This document shows, one piece after another, positions 1,663-58,400 of a stretch of DNA of 64,000 nucleotides. The stretch covers positions 62,001-126,000 of the forward strand of contig OY848918.1 in the NCBI GenBank assembly GCA_963693285.1, written 5' to 3'. The notes under the pieces are model-generated. The model made no database searches. It had not been told where the DNA came from and saw only the letters and a program-made list of their open reading frames with translations. How positions within the stretch are numbered: the first letter of the stretch is position 1; the number at the start of each line of letters is the position of its first letter. Made by a program: the position numbers and the translations under genes. The DNA is from Xestospongia muta (Eukaryota > Porifera > Demospongiae > Haplosclerida > Petrosiidae).

Positions 1663-4600
1663 ATGGCTACATCTAGATCAGGTCTGACTACATTATTATA
1701 ATAGTTATCTATTGTTATGTGTGTATATGTCATGTTCTACAGATTATTATGTACCTACAAAGAGGTACTTACACTCCACACATATAGTGGGTGACTACCT
1801 CTACATGTGGGGTGGTAAGATAGATCGTCTCCCTAGTGTACATGATAATGAAGTCAAACGGAGGATGACCACTGTTATTGAGTTATTTCACTTACCAACT
1901 GGTAGGTGGGAACAACGACCTACCAATGGAAAACCTCCACTGGGTGTCTTTAGATATGCCTCAACAGTTATCAGTAACAGGATCTACTACTTTGGAGGAC
2001 GTTGTAATCATGGCAAGTGTCGTCATAATAGTCTCAACTCATTAATAACAGATTCACTTACATAGAATGAACTGTTCCCAACTAATCCAAGTATGGGTCC
2101 AATGATGAAGTCAGGCTGTGGGATGATATCTCTTACATTCAATAAAGTGGATTATCTACTGGTAGTTTGTGGTATTGGTCCACGCCCCACCTCTCCACAA
2201 CCTGGTGCTCAGTATAATGATAGTGGTAATGTTCGTACTAATGAGCACCACTACTATCAGTTATCCAGTGGTAAGAAGATCAATATATCATGTTATCAAT
2301 ACATTATACATCAAGTACAATTTTATAACTGTTTGTATTTCAGGTCAGTGGATAATACCAGACATCAGTGGAGAACGCCCACCTCTTTGTAGTAGCTTCA
2401 CTCTTACATCACTACCATATAACAGAGCTCTGTTGTTTGGTGGTTATACTCCTAATAGTTGTGTTAACACTGTGTATATTGCTCAGTGTACAAAGACTGC
2501 AGTGGTGAGTACAATATGTACTAAGTTAAAGTATTTAGTTACTGTATAATATTGTGGAGTAATCAAGTTTAAAGTTTGAGAATGTTGAATGAACTAAATT
2601 TAGAGTATAGTGTCTTTATATTATTATTAGGAACTGTTTTATTAATGAACAAGTGATTCAATGTTTGTTAATATTTCTTTAGTCAACTTAGAGGTTATAG
2701 TAATAACTGAAACATTCCTATAGTCAACTATAGTGATACCATATTTCCTTGACTAAATGTCACTCTTGAATAGTAGCCTCCCTTTTTGTATATCAACGAT
2801 GATGACCTTGAATAAATGCTGTAATGCCTGCTTAACAAAATTGTCTATTACTAAGTTGTTCTGTCTAAAAATGAACAACACAAAAAAATTTCATTTTTAA
2901 AAAATCTTTTATCAGTCATTAAATAGCTGTAGTTTGATAAAGTCCTTAAACAATTGAGTTGACAAAGATGTAATATTTACTTAAAACTCCTGTCAAAGCT
3001 TGATCTATCATTTACTAACTGATATACAAAGTTTGAAGCTATTGTTTATCAGGAATGTTCATAATCACTTCTAATTCTAGAAAATTTAATGATTCACAAT
3101 TATATTTTAAATACTGTCCTTGATTAGACAATGTCCTCAAATAGTAAATTTTCCTGTTGTTGATGAATATTGAAATAGATGTCCCAGGTCTTATTGAAGG
3201 AAATATGGTAACTAAATTAAAATCCACATAAAGTATAAAATGAGCAATATTCTTAAACATTTCCCAGTATACAGTATTAATTACTGCTATGTTAATTGTA
3301 TAATATGTTAACTTGAGTATTATCTACCCAGCACTGGGAGAAGATAAGTGAACCACTTCCCAAATCAGTGAATTGGCCTCAGAGTAGATGTTATCATGCT
3401 ACCACTATTATCAGTGACCTACATGTGATAATGGTGGGTGGAATAGATGAGTCATATAAGATTATTGCTGACAGCTGGTTATTTAACATTGATACAAAGA
3501 CATGGACAAAGGTTAGTTACTAGTTATCATGTGACCTAACTCTAACACAAAGTGAGTTAATGTCTATGATCTACAGTATGAGGGGACATAATAAAGTGTG
3601 ACTATTTAAACTTTGACCTCTGAAAATAACTCTCATCTATAGATAATTTATAATTAATAATAGTTATTGTTTTTTATGAGCTGGTTTTATAACTGTAGTC
3701 CTGACACTATAGTATGTTAACATTTATGATAGTATAGTCTTTTGATATATCTGATTTGTTTATAGTTGTAATTCAGTTATTAAAGACTGTATATAAGTAC
3801 TTATGTTCATGTTTTAAGTCTTGTAACATGTCAACTCTACCAGTTGATACAAAGTTATAGTCTGTTACTAGAGTGCATGTATCCACTGATGTTACATGTA
3901 TAATGACTAGTTTTGTAGTAATATCATAACATCATTATTATAATGTCATATAGTACAATATATTCCATCTTATAGCTCACTATACCAGAGTCAGTGACTA
4001 AGAGAAGGAGCCACTCCCTCTCAGTATGGAATGTGTCACCTACCACTGTCTGGGTAGTACAATTTGGAGGATTCTGTAGTGGTAAACTCAATGATACTAC
4101 AGTACTAGAACTTAGTAAGTACTGTCTATTGATGATAGTATTTGTTATATAGTACACACACACATTATCAGTATTATTACAGTATGATATAGGAGTGTTG
4201 ACACACTAACTGTTTGTATTACAAGCTAGTCTCATAACTCGATACTATTGTAACATACTATATCTCTCACTTTAGTATGTAATAATGACCAATGGTCTCT
4301 AGGAGATGTAATAACTAACCTGAGATCAACTGAAGAATATCAACTTAAGCTACAACAGAAGAGACAAGAAACATCTGTACAACCTTTTGTGAGACATGAA
4401 CAACCTCAACTTACTGTCCAATCTCCTACACATCATCAACCTTCTTCTTCATCATGTCAAGAGTCACAAGAGAAAGATAGAGAAATCCAACAATTAACAC
4501 AACAACTTGAAGTTACCAACAAAGAGCTACAAGATACCAAACAACAGCAGCTAGATTTGACAAGACCTCTTCAAGAGGACCTTCAAACAAAAGAAGGACA

Positions 4601-5624
4601 ACTAAATCAACTACATCGAGAAATTCAAGAGAAACAACAAACTCAAGCTACACTTCAACATGAACAAAGATTACTTCAAGAACAGCTACAGGATAGTCAA
4701 GAGAGGGAAAGAGTACTACGTCAAGAGTGTAATGACCTTCGTCGAGAACATGACAATATCGAACAAGATCTTCGTCAACAACTTCAAGAGTCAACCTCTG
4801 CTCTTCAACAAACACGTCAAGATAATGCCACTCTTCAACAAGAAGTTCAACAGTTACAAGAACAGTCTCACTGGGTAGTGAGGAAAGAGGAGATTGAGAT
4901 GACTGAGGAGATCCTTGGGAAAGGAGGTTGGGGAGAAGTCAAGGTGGCTAAATTTCGAGGCCTTAGAGTAGCTGCCAAATGTCTTCATGAAGTTATCCTG
5001 TCACCATATAACATATCAGTTTTTACAAGAGAAATGGAGATTGCTGCTCGAGTACGTCATCCTAATCTCCTTCAGTTCATAGGAGCCACTCGAGTGGGTA
5101 CTCCTATCATCCTATCAGAATTAATGCCAACAAGCCTTCGTAAAGAGCTAGAAACTGGTCCTCTTCCTTATCATGGTGTTTTAGCAATCAGTCAAGATAT
5201 AGCCTGTGGTCTCAACTATCTTCACCTCTTTAAACCAGACCCAATACTACATAGAGATGTCAGCACTGCTAATGTCCTTCTGCAGCCAATTAGTGGTGGG
5301 TGGAGAGCCAAGGTATCAGGCTATGGTTCAGCTAATCTTCAACCAATGATTGGTAGAACAGTCAATCCAGGTAATCCAGTTTATTCTGCTCCAGAAGCTG
5401 GTGTACCAAGAGACCATTCTCCTGCAATGGATGTTTACAGTTATGGTGTTGTCTTGGTTGAAATGATGATCTGTCGTATTCCTGAGGTAGCTCAGAGACA
5501 ATTTCATATTAACAGTATTCAACGACCAATGTTTAAAGCACTTATTGAACGATGTTTGAAGGAGAATCGTAGAGAACGTCCAACAATGTCTGAGATTATA
5601 AGATATTTCAATGAGACCATTTAA
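1663..5624 (+). pseudogene. Kelch-coiled coil-TKL kinase, copy A (nonsense codon)
   Basis: Six exons follow the family pattern: 1663-1681, 1743-2270, 2344-2504, 3332-3511, 3976-4114, 4276-5624. The total would be 791 codons. The start is MATSRS, shared by copies B, C and F. Exons 2-5 form a six-blade kelch propeller, the first half of exon 6 is a Gln/Glu-rich coiled coil, and the end is a TKL-like kinase (GKGGWGEV loop, VAAK Lys, HRDVSTANVLL catalytic loop, SAPEA). Damage seen directly: TGG of SLTWNELF is TAG at 2063-2065; the third GG pair is CG (LVVCGIG); and the DYG Asp is Gly (VSGYGSA). The kinase C-lobe is type 1, as in C and D. All splice sites and exon 6 are otherwise open, so the loss looks recent. 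A read-through or allelic explanation cannot be excluded. Confidence 0.85.
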
Positions 5625-6820: not shown

Positions 6821-6821
6821 G

Positions 6822-7099: not shown

Positions 7100-7253
7100 A
7101 TGGAGTTTGTAACCACAACTAGAGGAGCTCAAGCACTTATTCATGAAGGCTACGACTATGTTCTCAACAGGCGAGGTCGTGATGAGTGAATCTTTTGGAG
7201 ATGTACTAAGAGTCACTGTTGCAGTGGAGCACTGACTACAATCAATGATGAGA
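7100..7253 (+). pseudogene. FLYWCH zinc-finger fragment 1
   Basis: Translation from 7100 gives MEFVTTTRGAQALIHEGY, then YVLNRRGRDE, an in-frame TGA at 7187-7189, and IFWRCTKSHCCSGALTT. This fits the FLYWCH signature (F..T.RG...L...GY.Y....  ..FWRC....C.A...T). FLYWCH domains occur in DNA-binding proteins and Mutator-like (MULE) transposases. About 260 bp around it is duplicated at 11385-11640 with the same in-frame stop position (TAA there). A transposon origin is inferred. Confidence 0.6.
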
Positions 7254-7281
7254 TTGTATTCAGCAGAGCTTAATTTTACAG

Positions 7282-7701
7282 TATCGTCACCGTGGTTACC
7301 CATTAGCTCACTGTGACGGTACTGCTGAGGAAATTATTAAGCAGTACAATGGTAAATCTATGTTAGAATATTGTCATTCTGTTTGTCCATCTTTCTGGCT
7401 GTCTATATGCATCTATTTTTTGTAAAAATATTAAAATTGTACACATGTATCTCTTTGTCTACAGGTGAACTTGATATGGTAGTTATTGGTGCTGGTACAG
7501 ATGGTACTGTTACTGGTATTGGAAGGAAAAGGAAAGAGGAGATGCCAAATGTTATAGTAGAAAGTATGACTCATTCAAAGCCCTCCATCATTTGTCAGTA
7601 GGTTATTGGTGTGGATCCTATAGGCTCTATATTAGCTGAACCTGAAGAATTAAATAAGACATCAATTACTTTTATCAGGTAATTTAGTGTTTTCACTGGC
7701 T

Positions 7702-7752
<51 letters not shown>

Positions 7753-8695
7753 GGGTGGAATGTATTAGTTATGATTTTATACCCACTATCCTTGATGGAT
7801 CAGTTGTTGATAAATGGTATAAAACAGGAGATGGTGGAAGTTTTGACTTTGCTCGACTTATCAAAGAAGAAGGACTATTGTGTGGTAAGTAGATGCATGC
7901 TCTTAAATAATGTAAAGCAATTTTTAATGTAGTAATTATGAGCTCACAAACTTTAAAAGTAGTCTTATATGTATTCCTCCTACTCACATGTAGGTGGGTC
8001 TAGTGGTAGTGCTGCGGCTGCTGCTGTAAAAGCTGCTCAGAAGCTACAAAAAGGCAACATTGTGTAGTTCCTTTACCAGACTCTGTCAGAAATTACGTGT
8101 CAGTATATTATACAGTATATGTCCGTATATTATATAGTATATTTATATACAATGTATTAGAAGATACAATAGACTTTTGTCTAGTAAAGTTATTACCTGT
8201 AATACTTCATCATAACATTGATGTTTTTTATTATGATAGGACCAAATTTATCAACAATGACTGGATGGTTGATAAAGGATATATGGAGTCATCTATACCT
8301 GAAAAAGATAAATGGTAATAATAAATTTTATTGACTAGGTATTTATTGTCCAATACACTACCTTCTCTCTGTTAGGTGGTGGAAACAACCTATAAGTGTC
8401 CTACAAATATGTCCTTCAATAACAGTTCAATCTGATGTGTCTTGTAGTGATACTCTTAAGATGTTAGGATCTGAAGCTATTGATCAAATGCCAGTAGTAG
8501 ACAAGAATGGGTATATATCACACTCACTATTTGATAATAGTATCATATATATACATATGATAAATGTAATATATTGTACTTATTTCTTTATCTATTACTA
8601 GCGATGTAGTGGGTGTGGTCACACTGACTAATATGACATCTAAAATGTTAAAAGGTACTGTAACTTCCTCAGAACCAGTTACTAAAGTCCTCTAA
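7282..8695 (+). pseudogene. CBS: Cystathionine beta-synthase fragment, degenerate
   Basis: Seven ordered exon remnants match the middle and C-terminal part of cystathionine beta-synthase, the PLP enzyme that condenses serine and homocysteine. They read RGYPLAHCDGTAEEI (7282-7351), GAGTDGTVTGIGRK plus VIGVDPIGSILAEPEE (7465-7678), [18 protein letters not shown] (7769-7884), GGSSGSAAAAAVKAAQ then PLPDSVRNY (7994-8098), TKFINNDWMVDKGYM (8240-8314), and two CBS-domain exons (8376-8511 with DQMPVVDKNG, 8602-8695 with GVVTLTNM). The N-terminal PLP-lysine exons are absent. A TAG follows SIICQ in exon 2, a frameshift lies before PLPDS, and a stop ends the last exon early. The glycine-rich TGGT loop reads TDGT. 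Confidence 0.85.
7703..7752 (+). repeat. (CT)n microsatellite
   Basis: A run of about 25 CT units lies in an intron of the CBS remnant, just before a splice-acceptor-like stretch. Similar CT tracts precede CDK1-like exons at 12040-12065, 18391-18434, 25239-25262, 49710-49735 and 49818-49866, where they act as polypyrimidine tracts. Confidence 0.9.
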
Positions 8696-8699
8696 AAAC

Positions 8700-9221
8700 A
8701 ATTTGAAATGGTCATCAATATTGTTAGAATTGTAATGATTGATATAATTCTCTTAGTTGGATATTGCTACTCAATTGGGTCATCTCTCATAGACTTTGTG
8801 TAGATTTGAATTTTGTTATTTATCATTTGAATAATCAACTAATAAATTAATCTAGACCACTTATATAATGTTATTGTAATATTAGTTTGATCAACAATGA
8901 ACATTATGTTAACACTATATTGACAACACACTATGAGTACATTATTGTTAATGTGCAGCTAAGTATGTTATCACATAATGTGATTTAGTGATAACACTGA
9001 AGCCATTAAAAATCAATATTATTAAAATTTATATAAAGTTATTAACATTATATTAGCACCATATTAAGAACATACTATATGTGAGTACATTATCGCTAAT
9101 GTACAGGTAGGTATATTATCACATAATGTGGTTTAGTAATAACATTGCAAACTACTACTGTTTTTATAAAAGTGCACTTGTTTGTCCATATACCAAGAGA
9201 GAGAGAGAGAGAGAGATTAAA
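8700..9221. repeat. Intergenic; imperfect tandem duplication of about 135 bp
   Basis: Two diverged copies lie at about 8907-9003 and 9040-9147. Shared words include GAGTACATTAT, CTAATGTACAG and TATTATCACATAATGTG. No coding signal is seen. A short (GA)n tract at 9195-9215 lies just before the start codon of the next gene. Confidence 0.6.
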
Positions 9222-13329: not shown

Positions 13330-16300
13330 ATGGCTACATCTAGATCAGGTTTGACTACATTATTATAATAGTTATCTATTGTTATGTGTGTGTGTGTGTC
13401 ATGTTCTACAGATTATTATGTACCTACAAAGAGGTATGGTCACTCTACACATATAGTGGGTGACTACCTCTACATGTGGGGTGGTTATATAGATGGTCTC
13501 CATGGAGTACATGATAATGAAGTCAAACGGAGGATGACCTCTGTTATTGAGTTATTTCACTTACCAACTGGTAAGTGGGAACAACGTCCTACCAATGGAA
13601 AACCTCCACTAGGTGTCTGGGGCTATGCATCAACTGTTATCAGTAACAGGATCTATTACTTTGGAGGACGTTGTAATCATGACCAGTGTCGCCATAATAG
13701 TGTCAACTCATTAATAACAGATTCACTTACATGGAATGAACTGTTCCCAACTAATCCAAGTATGGGTCCAATGATGAAGTCAGGCTGTGGGATGATATCT
13801 CTTACATTCAATAAAGTGGATTATCTACTGGTAGTTGGTGGACATGGTCCATGTCCCACCTCTCCACAACCTGGTGCTCAGTATAGTGATGCTTATAGTG
13901 GTAATGTTCGTACTAATGAGCACCACTACTATCAGTTATCCAGTGGTAAGAAGATCAATATATCATGTTATCAATACATTATACATCAAGTACAATTTTA
14001 TAACTGTTTGTATTTCAGGTCAGTGGATAATACCAGAAATTACTGCAGAACACCCACCTCCTTGTTTTGGCTTCACTCTTACATCACTACCAAATAACAG
14101 AGCTCTGTTATTTGGTGGTTATACTCGTAATGGTCGTGTTAACACTGTGTATATTGCTCGGTGTACAAAGACTGCAGTGGTGAGTACAATATGTACTAAG
14201 TTAAAGTATTTAGTTACTGTATAATATTGTGGAGTAATCAAGTTTAAAGTTTGAGAATGTTGAATGAACTAAATTTAGAGTATAATGTCCTCAAATAGTA
14301 AATTTCCCTCACTGTAAAAATTGATTTGTTGATTTAACTAATATATTGTTATACAGGTTGCAAACTTAGTATGATGTAAAAGTTAACATAATACTGTTTT
14401 TATTTAGTGCATAAACAGTAGTACGTTAGTAATAAAAACAGTGTTATGTTTACTTTCACATCATATTAAGTTTATTACATGTAACCTGTATAACAATATA
14501 TTAGTTAAATCAACAAATCAATTTTTACAGTGCTGTTGTTGATGAATATTGAAATAGATGTCCCAGGTCTTATTGAAGGAAATATGGTAACTAAATTAAA
14601 ATCCACATAAAGTATAAAATGAGCAATATTCTTAAACATTTCCCAGTATACAGTATTAATTACTGCTATGTTAATTGTATAATATGTTAACTTGAGTATT
14701 ATCTACCCAGCACTGGGAGAAGATAAGTGAACCACTTCCCAAATCAGTGAATTGGCCTCAGAGTAGATGGCGTCATGCTACCACTATTATCAGTGACCTA
14801 CATGTGATGATGGTGGGTGGATTTGGTATGAGTACTTCTGACAGCTGGTTATATAACATTAATACAAAGACATGGACAAAGGTTAGTTACTAGTTATCTT
14901 GTGACTTAATTCTAACACAAAGTTAGTTAATGTCTATGATCTACAGTATGAGGGGACATAATAAAGTGTGAGTATTTGAACTTTTACCTCTGAAAATAAC
15001 CCTCATCTATAGAAAATTTATAATTAATAATAGTTATTGTTTTTCATGAGCTGGTTTTATAACTGTAGTCCTGACACTATAGTATGTTAACATTTATGAT
15101 AGTATAGTCTTTTGATATATCTGATTTGTTTATAGTTGTAATTCAGTTATTAAAGACTGTACATAAGTACTTATGTTCATGTTTTAAAGTCTTGTAACAT
15201 GTCAACTCTACCAGTTGATATAAAGTTATAGTCTGTTACTAGAGTGCATGTATCCACTGATGTTACATGTATAATGACTAGTTTTGTAGTAATATCATAA
15301 CATCATTATTATAATGTCACTATATTCCATCTTATAGCTCACTATACCAGAGTCAGTGACTAAGAGATTTGGCCAGTCCCTCTCAGTATGGAATGTGTCA
15401 CCTACCACTGTATGGGTAGTACAATTTGGAGGAAGAACAAGTTTAGGGAAGGGATCTGAACTCAATGATACTACAGTGGTAGAACTTAGTAAGTACTCTC
15501 TATTGATGATAGTATTTGTTATATAGTACACACACACATTATCAGTATTATCACAGTATGATATAGGAGTGTTGACACACTATCTGTTTGTATTACAAAC
15601 TAGTCTCATAACTCAATACTATTGTAATATACTATACTCTCACTCTAGTATGTAATAATGACCAATGGTCTCTAGAAGATGTAATAACTAACCTGAGATC
15701 AACTGAAGAATATCAACTTAAGCTACAACAGAAGAGACAAGAAACATCTGTACAACCTTTTGTGAGACACGGACAACCTCAACTTACTGTCCAGTCTACA
15801 CGTCTTCAACCTTCTTCTTCATCACGTCAAGAGTCACAAGAGAAAGATAGAGAAATCCAACAATTAACACAACAACTTGAAGTTACCAACAAAGAGCTAC
15901 AAGATACCAAACAACAGCAGATAGATGTGACAAGAGCTCTTCAAGAGGACCTTCAAACAAAAGAAAGACAACTAAATCAACTACATCGAGAACTTCAAAA
16001 GAAACAACAAACTCAAGCTACACTTCAACATGAACAAAGATTACTTCAACAACAGCTACAGGATAGTCAAGAGAGAGAAAGAGTACTATGTCAACAACTC
16101 CAAGAGTCAACATCTGCTCTTCAACAACAAGTTCAACAGTTACAAGAACAGTCTCACTGGGTAGTGAGGAGAGAGGAGATTGAGATGACTGAGGAGGTCC
16201 TTGGGAAAGGAGGTTGGGGAGAAGTCAAGGTGGCTAAATTTCGTGGCCTTAGAGTAGCTGCCAAATGTCTTCATGAAGTTATCCTGTCACCATATAACAA

Positions 16301-16919
16301 ATCAGTTTTTACAAGAGAAATGGAGATTGCTGCTCGAGTACGTCATCCTAATCTCCTCCAGTTCATAGGAGCCACTCGAGTGGGTACTCCTATCATCCTA
16401 TCTGAATTAATGCCAACAAGCCTTCGTAAAGAAATTGAGAAGTCTCTGCTAACACGACCTCAAATGATCAGGATTGCCCAAGACATATCTGCTGCACTAA
16501 ACTATCTTCATCTCTGGCAACCACACCCTATACTACATCGTGATGTTAGTAGTCCTAATGTCCTCCTTGAACCATCTGGTAGTGGAATGTGGAAGGCTAA
16601 ACTCTCTGATTATGGCTCAGCTAATCTTGTTCAAAGTATCTCAGCTAATAGTGTAGCTCCTGGTAATCCTTTCTATTCTGCACCTGAAGCTCCTTTTCCT
16701 GATCAACATTCTCCAGCAATGGATGTCTTTAGTTTTGGTGTTCTACTAATGGAGATCATCCTACGTCAACCTCCTGCTTCTAAAACAGCTGACAAAATGA
16801 CTCAATCAGAGACTATCCATTGGCCAGCTATGAAACGTCTTGTTCAGAGGTGTATCTCTCATGACAGTCAAGTTCGTCCATCTATTTCTCAAGTACTTAC
16901 TTACCTTGAACATATGTAG
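13330..16919 (+). CDS. Kelch-coiled coil-TKL kinase, copy B (intact)
   Basis: Exons are 13330-13348, 13412-13945, 14019-14179, 14711-14881, 15338-15488 and 15649-16919; all junctions keep frame and give 768 aa. Residues 1-344 form six kelch blades, each with R/V-x-x-[HYF]-[ST/A] about 16 residues before a GG pair. Residues about 407-517 form a Gln/Glu-rich coiled coil that could oligomerise the protein. Residues about 525-768 are a kinase: GKGGWGEV loop, VAAK (Lys 550), HRDVSSPNVLL (Asp 643), SDYGSAN (Asp 665), YSAPEA. DYG replaces DFG, and Ser replaces the Lys/Ala of HRDLK/A, so substrate class is uncertain; TKL is the best fit. No signal peptide or TM is seen, so it is probably cytosolic. 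The C-lobe is type 2, as in F. Intron 3 is about 600 bp shorter than in A and carries a miniature transposon. Confidence 0.88.
14310..14532. mobile_element. CACTG-ended miniature element in intron 3 of copy B
   Basis: A 223-bp insertion with long terminal inverted repeats (CACTGTAAAAATTGATTTGT and its complement; inner arms also pair, e.g. TTGTTATACAGGTT). The other copies read CCCTGTTG across this site; here it is CCCT[element]CTGTTG, so a 2-bp CT duplication flanks it. It is noncoding and a nonautonomous DNA transposon. The superfamily is uncertain (2-bp target site, CACTG ends). Confidence 0.85.
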
Positions 16920-25748: not shown

Positions 25749-28700
25749 ATGGCTACATCTAGATCAGGTTTGACTACATTATTATAATAGTTATCTATTG
25801 TTATGTGTGTGTGTGTGTCATGTTCTACAGATTATTATGTACCTACAAAGAGGTATGGTCACTCCACACATATAGTGGGTGACTACCTCTACATGTGGGG
25901 TGGTAAGATAGATGGTCTCCCTAGTGTACATGATAATGAAGTCAAACGGAGGATGACCTCTGTTATTGAGTTATTTCACTTACCAACTGGTAGGTGGGAA
26001 CAACGACCTACAAATGGAAAACCTCCACTGGGTGTATTTAATTATACCTCAACTGTTATCAGTAACAGGATCTACTACTTTGGAGGGCATTGTAATCATG
26101 ATGAGTGTCGTCATAATAGTCTCAACTCATTAATAACAGATTCACTTACATGGAATGAACTGTTCCCAACTAATCCAAGTATGGGTCCAATGATGAAGTC
26201 AGTCTGTGGGATGATATCTCTTACATTCAATAAAGTGGATTATCTACTGGTAGTTGGTGGAGTTGGTCCACATCCCACCTCTCCACAACCTGGTGCTCAG
26301 TATAGTATTGATTATGGTGATAATGTTCGTACTAATGAGCACCACTACTATCAATTATCCAGTGGTAAGAAGATCAATATATCATGTTATCAATACATTA
26401 TACATCAAGTACAATTTTATAACTGTTTGTATTTCAGATCAATGGATAATACCAATAATTAGTGGAGAACGCCCACCTCCTTGTCATCGATTCACTCTTA
26501 CATCACTACCAAATAACAGAGCTCTGTTATTTGGTGGTAGGACTCCTAATGGTCCTGTTAACACTGTGTATATTGCTCAGTGTACAAAGACTGCAGTGGT
26601 GAGTACAATATGTACTAAGTTAAAGTATTTAGTTACTATATAATATTGTGGAGTAATCAAGTTTAAAGTTTGAGAATGTTGAATGAACTAAATTTAGAGT
26701 ATAGTGTCTTTATATTATTATTAGGAACTGTTTTATTAATGAACAAGTGATTCACTGTTTGCTAATATTTCTTTAGTCAACTTAGAGGTTATAGTGATAA
26801 CTGAAACATTCCTATAGTCAACTATAGTGATACCATATTTCCTTGACTAAATATCACTCTTGAACAGTAGCCTCTCTTTGTGTATATCAATGAAATTGAT
26901 GATGACCTTGAATAAATGCTGTAATGTCTGCTTAACAAAATTGTCTATTACTAAGTTGTTCTGTTTAAAAGTTAACAACACAAAAATAAATTTTATTTTT
27001 TAAAAATCATTTATCGGTCATTAAATAGCTGTAATTTGATAAAGTCCTTAACAATTGAGTTGACAAGGAGGTAATATTTACTTAAAACTCCTGTCAAAGC
27101 TTGATCTATCATTTACTAACTGATATACAAAGTTTAAAGCTATTGTTTATCAGGAATGTTCATAATTACTTCTAACTCTAGAAACTTGAATGATTCACAA
27201 CTATATTTTAAATACTGTCCTTGATTAAACAATGTCCTCAAATAGTAAATTTCCCTGTTGTTGATGAATATTGAAATAGATGTCCCAGGTCTTATTGAAG
27301 GAAATATGATAACTAAATTAAAATCCACATAAAGTATAAAATGAGCAATATTCTTAAACATTTCCCAGTATACAGTATTAATTACTGCTATGTTAATTGT
27401 ATAATATGTTAACTTGAGTATTATCTACCCAGCACTGGGAAAAGATAAGTGAACCATTTCCCAAATTATTGAATTGGCCTTGGAGTAGCTACCACTATTA
27501 TCAGTGGCCTACATGTGATGATGGTGGGTGGACTTGATACATCATTAAATGCTATTGCTGATAGCTGGTTATTTAACATTGATACAAAGATATGGACAAA
27601 GGTTAGTTACTAGTTATCATGTGACCTAACTCTAACACTAAGTGAGTTAATGTCTATGATCTACAGTATGAGGGGACATAATAAAGTGTGACTATTTGAA
27701 CTTTGACCTCTGAAAATAGCCGTCATCTATAGAAAATTTATAATTAATAATAGTTATTGTTTTTTTGACCTGGTTTTAGAACTGTAGTCCTGACACTATA
27801 GTATGTTAACATTTATGATAGTATAGTCTTTTGATATATCTGATTTGTTTATAGTTGTAATTCAGTTATTAAAGACTGTACATAAGTACTTATGTTCATG
27901 TTTTAAAGTCTTGTAACATGTCAACTCTACCAGTTGATACAAAGTTATAGTCTGTTACTAGAGTACATGTATCCACTGATGTTACATGTATAATGACTAG
28001 TTTTGTAGTAATATCATAACATCATTATTATAATGTTATATAGTACACTATATTCCATCTTATAGCTCACTATACCAGAGTCAGTGACTAAGAGATGGGG
28101 CCAGTCCCTTTCAGTATGGAATGAGTCACCTACCACTGTATGGGTAGTACAATTTGGAGGAATTAAAAATTTTGATAAATTTAATGATACTAAAGTGATT
28201 GCATTTAGTAAGTACTGTCTATTGATGATAGTATTTGTTATATAGTACACACACACATTATCAGTATTATCAATGTATAATATAGGAGTGTTGAGACACT
28301 AACTGTTTGTATTACAAACTAGTCTCATAACTCAATACTATTGTAACATACTATATCTCTCACTGTAGTATGTAATAATGACCAATGGTCTCTTGGAAAT
28401 GTAATAACTAACCTGAGGTCAACTGAAGAATATCAAGTTAAACTACGACATAAGGGACAAGAAACATCTGTAAAACGTTTTGTGAGACATGGACAAAAAA
28501 AACTTACTGTCCAATCTCGTACACATCTTCAACCTTTTTCTTCATCACGTCAAGAGAAAGATAGAGAAATCCAACGATTAACACGACAACTTGAAGTTAC
28601 CAACAAAGAGCTACACGATACCAAACAACAGCAGATAGATTTGACAAGAGCTCTTCAAGAAGACCTTCAAACAAAAGAAAGACAACTAAATCAACTACGT

Positions 28701-29780
28701 CGAGAACTTCAAGAAAAACAACAAACTCAAGCTACACTTCAACATGAACAAAGATTACTTCAACAACAGCTACAGGATAGTCAAGAGAGGGAAAGAGTAC
28801 TACGTCAAGAGTGTGATGACCTACACCGAGAACATGATGAATATCGTCAACAACTCCAAGAATATGATAATATTGAACAAGATCTTCACCAACAACTCCA
28901 AGAACGTGACAATATCGAACAAGATCTTCATCAACAACTCCAAGAGTCAACCACTGCTCTTCAACAAATACGTCAAGCCAATGTCACTCTTCAACAACAA
29001 GTTCAACAGTTACAAGACCAGTCTCACTGGGTAGTGAGGAGAGAGGAGATTGAGATGACTGAGGAGATCCTTGGGAAAGGAGGTTGGGGAGAAGTCAAGG
29101 TGGCTAAATTTCGTGGCCTTAGAGTAGCTGCCAAATGTCTTCATGAAGTTATCCTGTCATCATATAACGTATCAGTTTTTACAAGAGAAATGGAGATTGC
29201 TGCTCGAGTACGTCATCCCAATCTCCTCCAGTTCATAGGAGCCACTCGAGTGGGTACTCCTATCATCCTATCTGAATTAATGCCAACAAGCCTTCGTAAA
29301 GAGCTAGAAACTGGTCCTCTACCATATCCTGCTGTTCTGACTATCAGTCAAGATATAGCCTGTGGTCTCAACTATCTCCACCTCTTTAAACCAGACCCAA
29401 TACTACATAGAGATGTCAGCACTGCTAATGTCCTTCTTACGCATGGGCAATGCGGCTGGAGAGCCAAGGTATCAGACTATGGTTCAGCTAATCTTCAACC
29501 AATGATTGGTAGAACAGTCAATCCAGGTAATCCAGTTTATTCTGCTCCAGAAGCTGGTGTACCAAGAGACCATTCTCCTGCAATGGATGTTTACAGTTAT
29601 GGTGTTGTCTTGATTGAAATGATGATCTGTTGTATTCCTGAGGTAGCTCAGAGACAACTTCATATTAGCAGTATTCAACGACCGACATTTAAAGCTCTTA
29701 TTGAACGATGTTTGAAGGAGAATTGTAGAGAACGTCCAACAATGTCTGAGATCATAAGAAACTTCAATGAGACCATTTAA
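25749..29780 (+). pseudogene. Kelch-coiled coil-TKL kinase, copy C (11-nt deletion)
   Basis: Exons are 25749-25767, 25831-26364, 26438-26598, 27433-about 27600, 28066-28207 and 28369-29780. Compared with the other copies, exon 4 lacks 11 nt between GAGTAG and CTACCACT (near 27489). This shifts the frame and reaches TGA at 27535-27537, and also removes the variable pair of the fifth blade. Everything else is open. The coiled coil is the longest in the family because of extra units (DNIEQDLHQQLQE repeated in tandem, 28861-28950). The kinase has type 1 C-lobe with HRDVSTANVLL and an intact SDYGSAN. The truncated product would keep four blades and no kinase. Possible rescue by skipping the 169-nt damaged exon would itself shift frame. 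Confidence 0.85.
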
Positions 29781-35093: not shown

Positions 35094-35742
35094 ATTATAA
35101 TAGTTATCTATTGTTACATGTGTGTGTGTCATGTTCTACAGGTTATTATGTACCTACAAAGAGGTCTGGTCACTCCACACATATAGTGGGTGACTACCTC
35201 TACATGTGGGGTGGTAATATACATGGTCTCCCTAGAGTACACAATAATGAAGTCAAATGGAGGATGACCTATGTTATTGAGTTATTTCACTTACCAACTT
35301 GTAAGTGGGAACAACAACCTACCAATGGAAAACCTCCACTGGGTGTCTATGATTATGCCTCAACTGTTATCAGTAACAGGATCTACTACTTTGGAGGCGA
35401 TTGTAATCATGACCAGTGTCATCATAATAGTCTCAACTCATTAATAACAGAGTCACTTACATGGAATGAACTGTTCCCAACTAATCCAAGTATGGGTCCA
35501 ATGATGAAGTCACACTGTGGGATGATATCTCTTACATTAAATAAAGTGGATTATCTACTGGTAGTTGGTGGTATTGGTCCATCTCCCACCTCTCCACAAC
35601 CTGGTGCTCAGTACAATAATGCTTATAGTGGTAATGTTCGTACTAATGAGCACCACTACTATCAATTATCCAGTGGTAAGAAGATCAATATATCATGTTA
35701 TCAATACATTATACATCAAGTACAATTTTTTAACTGTTTGTA

Positions 35743-35978
35743 CTCTATAAAAATTGATTTGTCATTTTAACAACTAATTTGTATCTGAAAGGAAGGACTA
35801 CTATGCATGGAATGTAGAATTTTTGTGAATTTCTCTCTGTGTAATATATTGGTATGTTATGCTATTACAAAGCAACAAATTATACAGTGAGTAATTCATG
35901 AAAATTCTAGATTCCATAGTAATCCAACTATGTAAAGTACAAATTAGTTGTTAAGACAACGTATTAATTTTTACAGTG
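35743..35978. mobile_element. CACTG-ended miniature element in intron 2 of copy D
   Basis: A 236-bp hairpin-like insertion. The left arm (CTCTATAAAAATTG..., AACAACTAATTTGTA, GGACTACTATG, GAATTT) pairs almost end to end with the right arm (CACTGTAAAAATTAA when complemented). The intact site in other copies reads TTTGTATTTCAG; here TTTGTA[element]TATTTCAG, a 2-bp TA duplication. It sits 8 bp before the exon 3 acceptor without destroying it. Confidence 0.85.
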
Positions 35979-37529
35979 TATTTCAGGTCAGTGGATAATA
36001 CCAGACATCAGTGGAGAACGCCCACCTCCTTGTTATAGCTTCACTCTTACATCACTACCAAATAACAGAGCTCTGTTATTTGGTGGTGATACTCCTAATG
36101 GTACTGTTAACACTGTGTATATTGCTCAGTGTACAAAGACTGCAGTGGTGAGAACAATATGTACTAAGTTAAAGTATTTAGTTACTGTATAATATTGTGG
36201 AGTAATCAAGTTTAAAGTTTAAGAATGTTGAATGAACTAAATTTAGAGCATAGTGTCTTTATATTATTATTAGGAACTGTTTTATTAATGAACAAGTGAT
36301 TCACTGTTTGTTAATATTTCTTTAGTCAACTTAGAGGTTATAGTGATAACTGAAACATTCCTATAGTCAACTATAATGATACCATATTTCCTTGACTAAA
36401 TGTCACTCTTGAATAGTAGCCTCCCTTTTTGTATATCAATGAAATTGATGATGACCTTGAATAAATGCTGCAATGTCTGCTTAACAAAATTGTCTATTGC
36501 TAGGTTGTTCTCTCTAAAAACAATGAATAAAAAAAAAAAAAAATCTTTTATCAGTCATTAAATAGCTGTAGTTTGATAAAGTCCATAAACAATTGAGTTG
36601 ACAAGAAGGTAATAATTACTTAAAACTCCTGTCAAAGCTTGATCTATCATTTACTAGCTGATATACAAAGTTTAAAGCTATTGTTTATCAGGAATGTTCA
36701 TAATCACTTCTAACTCTAGAAACTTTAATGATTGACAATTATATTTTAAATACTGTCCTTGATTAGACAATGTCCTCAAATAGTAAATTTTTCCTTTGGT
36801 GATGAATATTGAAATATATTTCCCAGGTCTTATTGAAGGAAATATGGTAACTAAATTAAAATCCACATAAAGTATAAAATGAGCAATATTCTTAAACATT
36901 TCCCAGTATACAGTATTAATTACTGCTATGTTAATTGTATAATATGTTAACTTGAGTATTATCTACCCAGCACTGGGAGAAGATAAATGAACCACTTCCC
37001 AAATCAGTGATTTGGCCTCAGAGTAGATCTAGTCATGCTACCACTATTATCAGTGACCTACATGTGATGATGGTGGGTGGACGTCCTAGAACTATTGCTG
37101 ACAGCTGGTTATTTAACATTGATACAAAGACATGGAGAAAGGTTAGTTACTAGTTATCATGTGACCTAACTGTAACACAAAGTGAGTTAATGTCTATGAT
37201 CTACAGTATGAGGGGACATAATAAAGTGTGACTATTTGAACTTTGACCTCTGAAAATAACCCTCATCTATAGAAAATTTATAATCAATAATAGTTATTGT
37301 TTTTTATGACCTGGTTTTATAACTGTAGTTCTGACACTATAGTATGTTAACATTTATGATAGTATAGTCTTTTGATATATCTGATTTGTTTATAGTTGTA
37401 ATTCAGTTATTAAAGACTGTATATAAGTATTTATGTTCATGTTTTAAAGTCTTGTAACATGTCAACTCTACCAGTTGATACAAAGTTATAGTCTGTTACT
37501 AGAGCACATGTATCCACTGGTGTTACATG

Positions 37530-38030
37530 CACTGAAAAAAGCATTTTGTCTTTTAAACTGAAGTATTCGTTACCACAGTTTCATAAGTATAATGTAAATC
37601 CATACTAAGTTGCTACAAAGCCAAAACCAGTGTAACTTAATATGTATAATTGGCTTTTTACATATTGAGTTAGACCAAAACTGGTCTAACTCAATATGTA
37701 AAAGCCAATTAGAAGCCAAAAAGTACTCTTTGTAGTTTATGTCCATTGACAGAAACCATATTGAACAGGTATATATACTAATTCAACTTAACTAACTGGA
37801 TTAGTTTCAGTCAAAATAGTATCTGCTTATAGCTTCAATTGAAGCCATGATCAATTACTATAGCAAAGTGTATGTTAAAGCAATGTGGTTGTAGATGCAG
37901 CTAGTTGGCTTTATACATATTAAGTTACACTAGTTTTGGCTTTGTAGCAACTTAGAATGGATTTACATTATACTTATGAAACTGTGGTAACGAATACTTC
38001 AGTTAAAATGACAAAATGCTTTTTTCAGTG
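37530..38030. mobile_element. CACTG-ended miniature element in intron 4 of copy D
   Basis: A 501-bp insertion with ends CACTGAAAAAAGCATTTTGT and its complement. Long subterminal pairing includes GAAGTATTCGTTACCACAGT and TTGCTACAAAGCCAAAAC, and a second hairpin lies in the middle (GAGTTAGACCAAAACTGGTC). Other copies read GTTACATGTATAATG; here GTTACATG[element]TGTATAATG, a 2-bp TG duplication. No coding capacity. Confidence 0.87.
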
Positions 38031-38119
38031 TGTATAATGACTAGTTTTGTAGTAATATCATAACATCATTATTATAATGTCATATAGTACACTATATTCC
38101 ATCTTATAGGTCACTACAT

Positions 38120-38153
38120 AACTGTAAACATCCTGCAATGGATGTTTACAGTT
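38120..38153. repeat. 14-bp perfect inverted repeat at a deletion junction
   Basis: AACTGTAAACATCC (38120-38133), 6-bp spacer, GGATGTTTACAGTT (38140-38153). The right arm is native kinase sequence present in A and C. The left arm is new and lies exactly where exon 5 stops and the kinase tail begins. Confidence 0.9.
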
Positions 38154-38335
38154 ATGGTGTTGTCTTGATTGAAGTGATGATCTGTTGTATTCCTGAGGTA
38201 GCTCAGAGACAACTTCATATTAACAGTATTCGACGACAAGCGTTCAAAGCTCTTATTGAACGATGTTTAAAGGAGAATCCTAGAGAACGTCCAACAATGT
38301 CTGAGATCATAAGAGACTTCAATGAGACAATTTAA

Positions 38336-39019
38336 TAGTAGACAATAATATAGTGTGTGTTACAATATTAGTAGTGAGTTGATTATAATAGTTAGTTTAG
38401 TTATTGTACTATGTGTGATCGTTATAATAATATTACCGTATTTGGACATTTCACTATCTCAACCTCCTACTTCTAAAACAGCTGACAAAATGACTCAATC
38501 AGAGACTATCCAGTGGCCAGCTATGAAATCTCTCATTCAGAAGTGTATCTTTCATGAGAGTCAAGTTCGTCCATCTGCTTTTCAAGTACTTACTGACCTT
38601 TTGCATGTTACGCTAAACTATTACTATAGGACTAGAACAAGTGTCCTAAATATAGAGGGTGTCCTTACTGGGAGGTTCCACATAATTACATGATATATTT
38701 CATTTTTAGTCAAACTACCAACTGTTACAATTGAGTCAGAAGGTCCAGTGGTTTCCATGGCAACACATACTCCACTACATTTTGGTTCACTACCTGTATC
38801 AGTATTGTTTGCCATTCATCATAAGTGGGTGTGGTTACATTAGTAACTACGACGTAATATTGTCCTCTAGATGGTCCAGTTTCTTTGATCCTACAGGAGG
38901 TGAGATGTCACTATGTTCTTGTTTAGTGAGTATTGTAGTCACTGACAAGAATATGTTAACTGGAGTGTATATACTAGGTAACCACACCTGCCACCACACC
39001 CCTTTATAATTGTAGAATA
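38336..39019 (+). pseudogene. Remnant type 2 kinase C-lobe and tail after copy D
   Basis: From about 38457 the reading SQPPTSKTADKMTQSETIQW, then PAMKSLIQKCIFHESQVRPS and AFQVLTDLLH, matches the end of the type 2 kinase of B and F. It is about 120 bp after the type 1 stop codon and separated by noncoding flank. From 38625 the sequence joins the common tail block (exon-like KLPTVTIESEGPVVSMATHT). This shows that both C-lobe types have sat in tandem. Confidence 0.8.
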
Positions 39020-42266: not shown

Positions 42267-43358
42267 ATTATTATTAGGAACTGTTTTATTAATGAACAAG
42301 TGATTCACTGTTTGTTAATATTTCTTTAGTCAACTTAGAGGTTATAGTGATAACTGAAACATTCCTATAGTCAACTATAGTGATACCATATTTCCTTGAC
42401 TAAATGTGACTCTTGAATAGTAGCCTCCCTTTTTGTATATCAATGAAATTGATGATGACCTTTAATAAATGCTGTAATGTCTGCTTAACAAAATTGTCTA
42501 TTACTAAGTTGTTCTGTCTAAAAACGATGAATAAAAAAGAATTTTTATTTTATAAAAATCTTTTATCAGTCATTAAATAGATGTAGTTTGATAAAATCCT
42601 TAAACAATTGAGTTGACAAGGAGGTAATATTTACTTAAAACTCCTGTCAAAGCTTGATCTATCATTTACTAACTGATATACAAAATTTAAAGCTATTGTT
42701 TATCAGGAATGTTCATAATCACTTCTAACTCTAGAAACATAATGATTGACAATTATATTTTAAATACTGTCCTTGATTAGACAATGTCTTCGTTTAGTAA
42801 ATTTCCTTGTTGTTGATGAATATTTAAATAGATGTCCCAGGTCTTATTGAAGGAAATATGGTAACTAAATTAAAATCCACATAAAGTATAAAATGAGCAA
42901 TATTCTTAAACATTTCCCAGTATACAGTATTAATTACTGCTATGTTAATTAAATAATATGTTAACTTGAGTATTATCTACCCAGCACTGGGAGAAGATAA
43001 GTGAACCACTTCTCAAATCAGTGAATTGGCCTCAGAGGAGATATGGTCATGCTACCACTATTATCAATGACCTATATGTGATAATGGTAGGTGGATATCC
43101 TACTAATATTGCTGACAGTTGGTTATTTAACATTTATACAAAGACATGGACAAAGGTGAGTTACTAGTTATCATGTGACCTAACTCTAACACAAAGTGAG
43201 TTAATGTCTATGATCTACAGTATGAGGGGACATAATAAAGTGTGACTATTTGAACTTTGACCTCTGAAAATAACCCTCATCTATAGAAAATTTATAATTA
43301 ATAATAGTTATTGTTTTTTATGAGGTGGTTTTATAACTGTAGTCCTGACACTATAGTA
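42267..43358 (+). pseudogene. Kelch-kinase fragment E (introns 3-4 with exon 4)
   Basis: Homologous to 2618-3717 of copy A. It holds one complete exon 4 (42985-43155): HWEKISEPLLKSVNWPQRRY, then GHATTIINDLYVIMVGGYPT and ADSWLFN, ending at a GTGAGT donor. The reading is open, with its own variable pair (YG) and post-GG residue (Y). No other exon is present, so it is an isolated one-blade cassette. Confidence 0.88.
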
Positions 43359-55308: not shown

Positions 55309-55429
55309 GTGTATTATGTTTTATTACTTGTTTATTATTCATTGAAAATGTCAAATAATAATTTATGGGAGACCATGCCCATTGTGAAATTAAGTGCTTG
55401 TTCCTCTGCCTAGGAGCAATCTAGAAAAG

Positions 55430-58400
55430 ATGGCTACATCTAGATCAGGTTTGACTACATTATTATAATAGTTATCTATTGTTATGTGTGTGTGTGTCAT
55501 GTTTTACAGATTATTATGTACCTACAAAGAGGTATGATCACTCCACACATATAGTGGGTGACTACCTCTACATGTGGGGTGGTTATATAGATGGTCTCCC
55601 TCAAGTACATGATAATAAAGTCAAACGGAGGATGACCTCTGTTATTGAGTTATTTCACTTACCAACTGGTAAGTGGAAACAACGACCTACCAATGGAAAA
55701 TCTCCACTGGGTCTCTATAAATATGCCTCAACAGTTATCAGTAACAGGATCTACTACTTTGGAGGCTATTGTAATCATCACCAGTGTTGCCATAATAGTC
55801 TCAACTCATTAATAACAGATTCACTTACATGGAACGAACTGTTTCCAACTAATCCAAGTATGGGTCCAATGATGAAGTCAGGCTGTGGGATGATATCTTT
55901 TACATTCAATAAAGTGAATTATCTACTGGTAATTGGTGGATATGGTCCACGTCCCACCTCTCCACAACCTGGTGCTCAGTACAGTGACAAGGGAACACTT
56001 GGTGAAAATGTTCGTACTAATGAGCACCACTACTATCAGTTATCCAGTGGTAAGAAGATCAATATATCATGTTATCAATAAATTATACATCAAGTACAAT
56101 TTTATAACTGTTTGTATTTCAGGTCAGTGGATAATACCAGAAATTAGTGGAGAACGCCCACCTCCTTGTGATAGCTTCACTCTTACATCACTACCAAATA
56201 ACAGAGCTCTGTTATTTGGTGGTGATACTCCTGATGGTCCTGTTAACACTGTGTATATTGCACAGTGTACAAAGACTGCAGTGGTGAGTACAATATGTAC
56301 TAAGTTAAAGTATTTAGTTACTGTATAATATTGTGGAGTAATCAAGTTTAAAGTTTGAGAATGTTGAATGAACTAAATTTAGAGTATAGTGTCTTTATAT
56401 TATTATTAGGAACTGTTTTATTAATGAAAAAGTGATTCACTGTTTGTTAATATTTCTTTAGTCAACTTAGAGGTTATAGTGATAACTGAAACATTCCTAT
56501 AGTCAACTATAGTGATACCATATTTCCTTGACTAAATGTCAGTCTTGAATAGTAGCCTCCCTTTTTGTATATCAATGAAATTGATGATGACCTTGAATAA
56601 ATACTGCAATGTCTGCTTAACAAAATTGTCTATTACTAAGTTGTTCTGTCTAAAAGTTAACAACACAAAAAAGAAATTTCATTTTATAAAAATGTTATAT
56701 TTAAATTTTATTTTAAAAAATCATTTATCAGTCATTAAATAGCTGTAGTTTGATAAAGTTCTTAAACAGTTGAGTTGACAAGGAGGTAATATTTACTTAA
56801 AACTCCTGTCAAAGTTTGATCTATCATTTTACTAACTGATATACAAAGTTTAAAGCTATTGTTTATCAGGAATGTTCATAATCACTTCTAACTCTAGAAA
56901 CTTTAATGATTCACAATTATATTTTAAATACTGTCCTTGATTAGACAACGTCCTGAAATAGTAAATTTCCCTGTTGTTGATAAATATTGAAATAGATGTC
57001 CCAGGTCTTATTGAAGGAAATATGGTAACTAAATTAAAATCCACATAAAGTATAAAATGAGCAATATTTTTAAACATTTCCCAGTATACAGTATTAATTA
57101 CTGCTATGTTAATTGTATAATATGTTAACTTGAGTATTATCTACCCAGCACTGGGAGAAGATAAGTGAACCACTTCCCAAATCAGTGAATTGGCCTCAGA
57201 GTAGATATTTTCATGCTACCACTATTATTAGTGACCGACATGTGATGATGGTGGGCGGAGCTGGTACATCTGACAGCTGGTTATTTAACATTGATACAAA
57301 GACATGGACAAAGGTTAGTTACTAGTTATCATGTGACCTAACTCTAACACAAAGTGAGTTAATGTCTATGATCTACAGTATGAGGGGACATAATAAAGTG
57401 TGACTATTTGAACTTTGACCTCTGAAAATAACCCTCATCTATAGAAAATTTATAATTAATAATAGTTATTGTTTTTTATGACCTGGTTTCATAACTGTAG
57501 TCCTGACACTATAGTTTGTTAACATTTATGATAGTATAGTCTTTTGATATATCTGATTTGTTTATAGTTGTAATTCAGTTATTAAAGACTGTACATAAGT
57601 ACTTATGTTCATGTTTTAAAGTCTTGTAACATGTCAACTCTACCAGTTGATACATAGTTATAGTCTGTTACTAGAGTACATGTGTCCACTGATGTTACAT
57701 GTATAATGACTAGTTTTTGTAGTAATATCATAACATCATTATTATAATGTAATATAGTACACTATATTCCATCTTATAGCTCACTATACCAGAGTCAGTG
57801 ACTAAGAGATACGACCACTCCCTCTCAGTATGGAATGTGTCACCTACCACTGTATGGGTAGTACAATTTGGAGGATACTGTAGTGGTAAACTCAATGATA
57901 CTACAGTACTAGAACTTAGTAAGTACCGTCTATTGATGATAGTATTTGTTATATAGTATACACACACATTATCAGTATTATCACAGTATGATATAGGAAT
58001 GTTGATACACTAACTGTTTATATTACAAAGTAGTCTCATAACTCAATACTATTGTAACATACTATATCTCTCACTGTAGTATGTAATAATGACCAATGGT
58101 CTCTAAAAAATGTAATAACTAACCTGAGGTCAACTGAAGAATATCAACTTAAGCTACGACAGAAGAGACAAGAAACATCTGTACAACCTTTTGTGAGACA
58201 TGGACAACCTCAACTTACTGTCCAATCTCCTACATGTCTTCAACCTTCTCCTACATCACATCAAGAGTCACAAGAGAAAGATAGAGAAATCCAACGATTA
58301 ACACAACAACTTGAGGTTACCAACAAAGAGCTACAAGATTCCAAACAACAGCAGATAGATTTGACAAGAGCTTTTCAAGAGGACCTTCAAACAAAAGAAA

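What the first reader, a model, noticed from the sequence alone, without database searches (positions are those of the whole stretch)
1743..57918. Hypervariable codons at the same two spots of every kelch blade, on a near-identical scaffold
Aligning copies A, B, C, D, F (and E for blade 5), framework and introns are almost constant. The differences cluster at (1) the two residues after the conserved R/V/C that starts each blade and (2) the residue just after each GG. Pairs (A/B/C/D/F): blade 1 YL/YG/YG/SG/YD; blade 2 FR/WG/FN/YD/YK; blade 3 SG/SG/SV/SH/SG; blade 4 SS/FG/HR/YS/DS; blade 5 CY/WR/deleted/SS/YF (E: YG); blade 6 RS/FG/WG/lost/YD. After GG: K/Y/K/N/Y, R/R/H/D/Y, I/H/V/I/Y, Y/Y/R/D/D, I/F/L/R/A (E: Y), F/R/I/lost/Y. 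In blades 1 and 2 the distance from the first residue to GG (16) equals that in human KEAP1, so these sites fall where KEAP1 has pocket residues such as Ser363, Arg380, Arg415, Tyr525, Ser555 and Tyr572. Aromatic and charged residues dominate. This looks like a propeller ligand face under diversifying selection, coupled to a coiled coil and a kinase: a candidate sensor or self/non-self recognition family.
Basis: partly seen in the sequence, partly recalled or inferred. Interest (0 to 1): 0.92.

Follow-up and report, generated by a model that had tools for sequence, protein, structure and literature searches.

The report
Sponge kelch-kinase receptors with hypervariable pocket
A sponge genome carries a large family of similar genes whose propeller-shaped sensor domain differs between copies mostly in the residues lining its binding pocket, which looks like an inherited repertoire of recognition receptors wired to kinase signalling.

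Summary
Confirmed, and larger than the window. The genome holds at least 152 matching kelch exons; I aligned 36 copies. The sites named differ in 74% of pairwise comparisons against 13% for the other kelch codons; in the 31 copies outside the window 17 of the 18 rank within the top 39 of 335 sites. Introns differ by medians of 2-4%. Silent T/C change in the same codons is low (pi 0.11 against 0.53/0.49 at positions 1/2), so residues are being diversified, not merely mutated. Site tests mostly agree. Of 27 highly variable positions, 22 lie in D-A/B-C connections, 5 beside them, 0 of 35 in opposite-face loops. Six of seven KLHDC2 degron-pocket residues fall on them. The same sites vary in Amphimedon queenslandica relatives. 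The kinase is under purifying selection; other kelch exons have Death or ZU5 domains downstream. Best reading: germline-encoded intracellular recognition receptors. Ligand, immune role and allelic diversity are not shown.

The parts
1663..5624 (+). copy A: exons 1663-1681, 1743-2270, 2344-2504, 3332-3511, 3976-4114, 4276-5624; kelch + coiled coil + type II kinase; one in-frame TAG in the first kelch exon
13330..16919 (+). copy B, intact 768 aa: exons 13330-13348, 13412-13945, 14019-14179, 14711-14881, 15338-15488, 15649-16919; kelch propeller, coiled coil, TKL-type kinase (type I C-lobe)
25749..29780 (+). copy C: exons 25749-25767, 25831-26364, 26438-26598, 27433-27601 (frame broken, blade 5), 28066 onward, 28369-29780; type II kinase
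35143..38600 (+). copy D, truncated: exons 35143-35675, 35987-36147, 36971-37141; no exon 4 match, only a kinase C-terminal fragment at 38459-38600
42985..43155 (+). copy E: isolated blade-5 exon (open frame, AG and GT at its ends)
55430..59404 (+). copy F, intact 782 aa: exons 55430-55448, 55510-56049, 56123-56283, 57149-57313, 57780-57918, 58080-59404; type I kinase
13435..13440 (+). copy B blade 1 hypervariable codons after R (sites e1:8, e1:9)
   Evidence: e1:9 positive and e1:8 not; coordinates read
13486..13488 (+). copy B blade 1 codon after GG (e1:26; aligns with KLHDC2 Tyr50)
13618..13623 (+). copy B blade 2 codons after V (e1:70, e1:71)
   Evidence: e1:70 positive and e1:71 not
13669..13671 (+). 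copy B blade 2 codon after GG (e1:87)
13783..13785 (+). copy B blade 3 codon after KS (e1:125; aligns with KLHDC2 Lys147)
13843..13845 (+). copy B blade 3 codon after GG (e1:146; aligns with KLHDC2 Tyr163)
14066..14071 (+). copy B blade 4 codons after C (e2:16, e2:17)
   Evidence: e2:16 on the global tree only
14120..14122 (+). copy B blade 4 codon after GG (e2:34; aligns with KLHDC2 Arg236)
14135..14137 (+). copy B blade 4 loop codon (e2:39; aligns with KLHDC2 Arg241)
14768..14773 (+). copy B blade 5 codons after R (e3:20, e3:21; align with KLHDC2 Ser269, Trp270)
14822..14824 (+). copy B blade 5 codon after GG (e3:38)
15368..15373 (+). copy B blade 6 codons after R (e4:11, e4:12)
   Evidence: global tree only
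15434..15436 (+). copy B blade 6 codon after GG (e4:33)
   Evidence: global tree only

Best explanation
A large, germline-encoded family of intracellular recognition receptors. A KLHDC2-type six-bladed kelch propeller presents about 17 hypervariable pocket residues plus variable B-C loops on one face of a fixed scaffold (shown from sequence and from the model of a relative). Each copy carries its own pocket and so probably its own ligand specificity (inferred). Ligand binding would bring together or reorient receptors through the Gln-rich coiled coil and so activate the conserved TKL-type kinase, which relays the signal (inferred). Related copies seem to plug the same propeller into Death or Death-ZU5 modules (adjacency in this genome; kelch and Death in one protein in A. 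queenslandica). Diversifying selection on the pocket acts while scaffold and introns stay alike across arrays on different chromosomes, through recent duplication and/or conversion (pattern shown, cause inferred). The most likely role is recognition of non-self: microbial or parasite proteins or peptides inside the cell. Allorecognition is the main alternative use of the same machine.
For: Core sites: piN 0.46 against framework 0.042; codon positions 1/2 pi 0.53/0.49, silent T/C at position 3 only 0.108; 15 of 18 core and 4 of 289 framework sites PP>=0.95 (global tree). Among 537 copy pairs core residues differ by 72-78% in every bin of intron divergence; in the 6 pairs with introns <1% apart, 77.5%. 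24 of 24 full kelch domains have different pocket strings, differing at 9-17 of 17 sites, spread as in column shuffles. One face: 0 of 35 A-B/C-D loop positions exceed 2 bits, 22 of 143 D-A/B-C positions do. 6 of 7 KLHDC2 degron-pocket residues coincide (p 1e-6). Residues at the sites are mostly Tyr, Ser, Gly, Asp, His, Asn, Phe, Arg, which resembles antibody paratopes (recalled). Kinase omega 0.16-0.43, HRD in 21 of 21 long frames; among the best PDB matches CTR1, TAK1, TNNI3K, IRAK4, RAF. Same sites variable in A. queenslandica. Death downstream of 17 of 152 kelch exons, 0.49 expected; 12 ZU5 hits downstream of kelch exons, about 0.2 expected. No membrane span or hydrophobic start by hydropathy of B and F.
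Against: No ligand, expression or functional data. No individuals compared, so allelic diversity is unknown. The trees behind the site tests are unreliable: four-gamete incompatibility is flat at all distances. On local trees only 11 of 18 core sites pass and 15 of 289 framework sites do too; by the stricter grid likelihood-ratio test (p<0.01) only 6 of 18 core sites pass on either tree; e1:8 and e1:71 do not pass the posterior test on either tree. Silent change is itself about twofold higher in core codons (0.108 against 0.048) and higher near them. Two close copies (C2:395777, C6:8481305) show no long kinase frame in the 8 kb held, and 55 of 152 kelch exons have neither kinase nor Death seen downstream. 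One kelch-motif gene in each of two other sponges went down, not up, after microbial signals (PMC6208332, passages); their relation to this family is unknown.
Confidence: 0.67

Rival explanations
1. Allorecognition or cell-identity code: the hypervariable pockets recognise polymorphic self ligands of the same species (fusion and rejection of sponge tissue) rather than microbes, as fungal HNWD WD40 propellers recognise HET-C alleles.
For: The closest analogue found in the literature, Podospora het-d/het-e, is a beta-propeller with hypervariable sites under diversifying selection that reads a self ligand (PMC12222747, passages). Pocket strings are all different (24 of 24).
Against: Over 150 kelch exons in arrays on several chromosomes are more than a single allorecognition locus would need; no transmembrane segment is apparent in B and F; no polymorphic partner is known.
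Confidence: 0.17
2. Targeted or locally raised mutation (hypermutation, or a templated diversifying mechanism) creates the codon variation, with selection only filtering it.
For: Core divergence is saturated and uncoupled from intron divergence (r=0.016); silent 4-fold diversity falls from 0.095 next to the codons to 0.023 at 12 or more codons (rho -0.21, p 0.024); within core codons, third-position changes that alter the residue are not enriched over silent ones (137 against 228 pairs).
Against: Silent third-position T/C change in the same codons (0.108) is about a fifth of positions 1 and 2, which a blind local mutator would not give. Adenine-templated change would leave third positions fixed and would not yield Trp or Met codons, yet third positions vary and both codons occur. 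The gradient also fits hitch-hiking with old pocket variants; the 2-fold sites show no significant gradient (p 0.21).
Confidence: 0.08
3. Relaxed constraint: the pocket has lost its function in these duplicates and drifts neutrally while fold residues are kept.
For: Some copies are broken: a stop, frame break or missing kelch exon in 5 of 36 (A, C, D, C2_11059, C2_385260), and two more without a long kinase frame.
Against: Drift cannot exceed the neutral rate: pocket positions 1 and 2 differ at about 0.5 against 0.03-0.06 in introns. 31 of 36 copies have no lesion in the kelch exons held, and the contrast is the same in these 31; the kinase is under purifying selection; the same sites vary in another species.
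Confidence: 0.03
4. Endogenous adaptor family: each kelch-kinase selects a different host substrate (as KLHDC2 selects C-degrons), and diversification reflects expansion of internal signalling rather than recognition of non-self.
For: Closest solved fold is a C-degron reader and the variable sites are its pocket.
Against: Saturated, independent pockets in copies with nearly identical introns suggest a moving target, unusual for conserved host substrates; Death/ZU5 neighbours hint at defence-type signalling.
Confidence: 0.1

Closest known systems
KLHDC2 (and KLHDC3/KLHDC10) kelch C-degron receptors
   Different: A pocket for C-terminal diglycine degrons in KLHDC2 (passages); here the pocket differs from copy to copy, and the propeller is joined to a coiled coil and kinase.
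KEAP1 kelch domain
   Different: BTB-kelch E3 adaptor with a conserved pocket (recalled); more distant than KLHDC2.
Fungal HNWD NLRs (Podospora het-d/het-e)
   Same: Beta-propeller sensor on a near-identical scaffold with a few hypervariable codons under diversifying selection at the predicted interaction surface, and concerted evolution (PMC12222747 passages).
   Different: WD40 repeats and an NLR core, variation among repeats within one gene and among alleles; here kelch blades, variation among paralogues, kinase or Death neighbours, in an animal.
Animal NLRs, including sponge NLRs
   Same: Large intracellular sensor families with signalling domains such as Death or CARD in sponges (PMC12909245, listing and passages).
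   Different: No NACHT or LRR model matches copy B; the word kelch does not occur in the main text of that sponge NLR paper.
Coral tachylectin-2
   Same: A putative coral immunity gene with high amino acid diversity and positive selection (PMC2880987, search listing; beta-propeller lectin recalled).
   Different: Not kelch; no kinase or Death module (recalled).

Membership tests
KLHDC2-type kelch propeller (fold) | Match to the KLHDC2/KLHL20/DRC7 kelch model | tested here: met
   PF24681 114 bits, cut-off 50, copy B
KLHDC2-type kelch propeller (fold) | Closed six-bladed fold superposing on KLHDC2 | tested here: met
KLHDC2 C-degron E3 receptor (function) | Conserved degron pocket (Arg236/Arg241/Ser269) | tested here: not met
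   These positions are hypervariable: e2:34, e2:39, e3:20
KLHDC2 C-degron E3 receptor (function) | Elongin/Cullin-2 binding | not tested
   No box search was run
TKL-type protein kinase | Kinase domain with catalytic motifs | tested here: met
   Pkinase 116.7 bits; HRD in 21 of 21 frames >300 aa; CTR1, TAK1, TNNI3K, IRAK4 among the best PDB matches; DYG in place of DFG in copy B read by eye. Assignment to TKL rests on these neighbours, no tree was made
NLR / HNWD receptor | NACHT or NB-ARC nucleotide-binding domain | tested here: not met
   None among the 14 Pfam families listed for copy B at E<=1
NLR / HNWD receptor | Hypervariable codons under diversifying selection on one propeller face | tested here: met
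   (works-like, not membership)
HNWD receptor | Allelic polymorphism and repeat-number variation | not testable with these tools
   One assembly only
Templated hypermutation (DGR-like) | Only template-adenine positions vary; other positions fixed | tested here: not met
   Third positions also vary (pi 0.257) and TGG/ATG codons occur; no reverse transcriptase or template was looked for

The most novel reading that the evidence does not exclude
An animal counterpart of an antibody repertoire built on a kelch propeller: a C-terminal-peptide (C-degron type) pocket converted into an anticipatory reader of foreign protein ends or peptides, with over 150 pockets per genome, exchangeable kinase or Death outputs, and a dedicated process (conversion-linked or templated mutation) that keeps scaffolds alike while renewing pocket codons, perhaps also somatically.
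Probability: 0.1. Interest if true: 0.97.

Novelty: new variant of a known kind. Interest (0 to 1): 0.86.

Why it matters
Large diversified receptor repertoires are known in vertebrates, plants and fungi, and as NLRs in invertebrates. A kelch-based one in sponges, with variation concentrated at the pocket and alternative kinase or Death outputs, would add a new recognition scaffold in an early-branching animal lineage. It would make testable how animals without antibodies tell symbionts, pathogens and neighbours apart. The map onto the KLHDC2 pocket also gives a direct way to look for ligands.

Tried and rejected
Linkage decay and a PHI-like test to show gene conversion tracts: flat (four-gamete incompatibility 0.27-0.41 at all distances; near pairs 0.298 against permuted 0.277), so conversion is neither shown nor excluded. 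Tree-based site tests on local trees gave fewer core (11 of 18) and more framework (15 of 289) positives than the global tree, and the stricter likelihood-ratio version passed 6 of 18 core sites; I rest the case on tree-free contrasts. Relaxed constraint and a simple hotspot were rejected for the reasons under rivals. CARD and COR-A hits were compared with the kelch arrays by eye only: none seemed to lie in them. A. queenslandica relatives bear CARD, ZU5 and Death in their UniRef names, but of 10 scanned Pfam found Death only in P0089, and COR-A, below its cut-off, in P0052 and P0089. Species naming failed: the RPC2 exon search gave no named sponge in the 120 rows listed of 452; all named rows among the 120 listed of 205 are A. 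queenslandica, at 30-53% identity, so I call the organism a relative of that sponge by inference. Papers: searches were seen as listings (one search lists 20 of 67), with passages of five papers read; no row reported a hypervariable kelch family in sponges. Many subscription papers and all bioRxiv preprints are outside that library.

Limits of the counts: the genome searches scored 150 of 188, 148 of 462, 150 of 1488, 150 of 179, 150 of 182, 150 of 261 and 52 of 52 candidates, so exon and effector counts are lower bounds. In one search, 14 of the 61 ZU5 rows were compared with 46 of the 152 kelch exons, the rest set aside by eye. The 'loop' class was chosen after seeing the data. Dropped before counting: one e1 and one e3 exon with a broken frame; sites with fewer than 15 copies; for the kinase exon, 10 of 36 copies not held and 5 with frames under 300 aa. 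The numbering offset for KLHDC2 (chain index + 12) was chosen because the letters of all six residues then agree.
Full report
Setting. The window is C2:62001-126000 of a 158.0 Mb, 28-contig genome. The best named relatives of the whole protein are Amphimedon queenslandica proteins at 46-47% identity over 99% of its length (P0004, P0007), so the organism is inferred to be a sponge related to, but not the same as, A. queenslandica; it could not be named.

Gene anatomy. Copy B is one 768-residue protein from six exons: a short start exon, four exons for six kelch blades, and one exon for a Gln-rich coiled coil and a protein kinase. Pfam gives KLHDC2-type kelch (114 bits) and Pkinase (117 bits). 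F is likewise intact (782 aa); A has one in-frame TAG, C a broken exon-3 frame, D is truncated, E is a blade-5 exon. Hydropathy of B and F shows no membrane span.

Scale. A search with the blade 1-3 exon scored 150 of 188 candidates, all 150 matching at E<=1.5e-34; two more appear only, giving 152 exons: 60 close copies (67-100% identity), mainly on C2:0-0.41 Mb and C6:6.8-8.5 Mb, and 92 distant ones (39-50% where one search lists them), mainly on C7, C6:2.2-2.4 Mb and C1. I held letters for 36 copies with the first kelch exon. Splice dinucleotides are kept at the exon ends that could be read. 31 of 36 show no stop, frame break or missing exon in the kelch exons held; the five others are A, C, D, C2_11059 and C2_385260. 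Two further copies (C2:395777, C6:8481305) show no long kinase frame in the 8 kb held.

Variability. Tyr and Ser lead the residues (128 and 93; then Gly 65, Asp 50, His 36, Asn 36, Phe 35, Arg 31).

Selection, not drift or a blind hotspot. Core piN is 0.461, loop 0.414, framework 0.042; framework piS 0.082. Introns i1-i4 differ by medians of 2.4-3.9% and means of 2.9-6.7%, the kelch exons by means of 8-12%, so the exons are more divergent than the introns. Inside core codons, positions 1, 2, 3 have pi 0.53, 0.49, 0.26, and silent T/C change at position 3 only 0.108 (framework 0.048). A stricter likelihood-ratio version passes 6 of 18 core, 1 of 28 loop and 1 of 289 framework sites (global tree). 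e1:8 and e1:71 fail the posterior test on both trees. The kinase exon is an internal control (21 copies): omega 0.82 in linker and coiled coil, 0.27 in the N-lobe, 0.16 and 0.43 in two C-lobe types (11 and 10 copies); 2 of 163 sites exceed 2 bits in type II and none in the other parts.

Decoupling. Across 537 pairs, core residues differ by 72-78% in every bin of intron distance; the six pairs with introns <1% apart differ at 77.5% of core and 6.4% of framework residues. These six were picked for low intron distance, which biases the contrast. Copies on C2 and C6 are as alike in introns (mean 5.7%) as copies within C6 (6.5%), and not much further apart than copies within C2 (4.1%). All 24 full kelch domains have different 17-residue pocket strings, with pairwise differences spread as in column shuffles (sd 1.77 against 1.48-1.91); adjacent codons are weakly associated (z 1.2-2.9). 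So the pockets behave nearly as independent draws on a shared scaffold. Silent 4-fold diversity is higher beside hypervariable codons (0.095) than 12 or more codons away (0.023; p 0.024), 2-fold sites not significantly: hitch-hiking with old pocket variants, or mild local mutation. Linkage tests were flat, so conversion is inferred, not shown.

Second species and other outputs. In 34 A. queenslandica relatives, 16 of the 18 homologous positions are among the 30 most variable of 326; e1:71 ranks 89. UniRef names among those relatives include Protein kinase, Death, CARD and ZU5. In the present genome, 80 of 152 kelch exons have a kinase exon within 7 kb downstream on the same strand, 17 a Death domain (0.49 expected), none both, 55 neither seen. 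Twelve of 14 ZU5 hits compared (of 61 listed) lie downstream of kelch exons, 9 of them just after a Death hit (read by eye). Whether these are single genes was not read.

Mechanism. Shown: variable pocket, fixed scaffold, conserved kinase, alternative neighbours. Inferred: ligand capture by the pocket, coiled-coil assembly, kinase relay, use against non-self. Podospora HNWD receptors are the nearest working model found (passages): same logic, different propeller and core.

Verdict. I rate it a new variant of a known kind (diversified germline receptors), with the caveat that function is inferred. No report of it turned up in the listings.

Noticed in passing
window 4276-5624, 15649-16919, 28369-29780, 58080-59404: The kinase exon comes in two C-lobe types (LRKEIEK/HRDVSSPN and LRKELETG/HRDVSTAN) on a shared N-lobe; silent diversity over the C-lobe is 0.37 with both types together against about 0.10 within a type, which suggests a past domain swap.
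   Followed up: partly
kelch introns i1-i4 of 36 copies: Introns (pi 0.028-0.056) are less diverged than exonic silent sites (piS 0.07-0.10 by Nei-Gojobori counts), also in the kinase exon; unexplained.
   Followed up: partly
window 12900-13130 and downstream of the copy at C2:1-7500 (L039): Pieces that look like CDK1-type kinase exons lie between kelch-kinase copies, apparently part of the repeated unit (read by eye).
   Followed up: no
window 103-627, minus strand: Open frame that looks like a fibrinogen-related domain (read by eye).
   Followed up: no
window 7100-8700: Exons that look like cystathionine beta-synthase (read by eye).
   Followed up: no
window 14083-14122 (second kelch exon of copy B and same place in other copies): A near-perfect palindrome of about 40 bases inside the exon (minus-strand hits of 85-92.5% in five window copies).
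   Followed up: no
G000 C5:6.2-6.9 Mb, C1:8.2-9.0 Mb, C6:0.80-0.91 Mb, C10:1.72-1.89 Mb, C12:1.51-1.66 Mb: Arrays of COR-A (ROCO-type) frames, many of about 700 residues, and 1488 first-look Death-domain candidates in the genome: other big expansions of signalling families.
   Followed up: no
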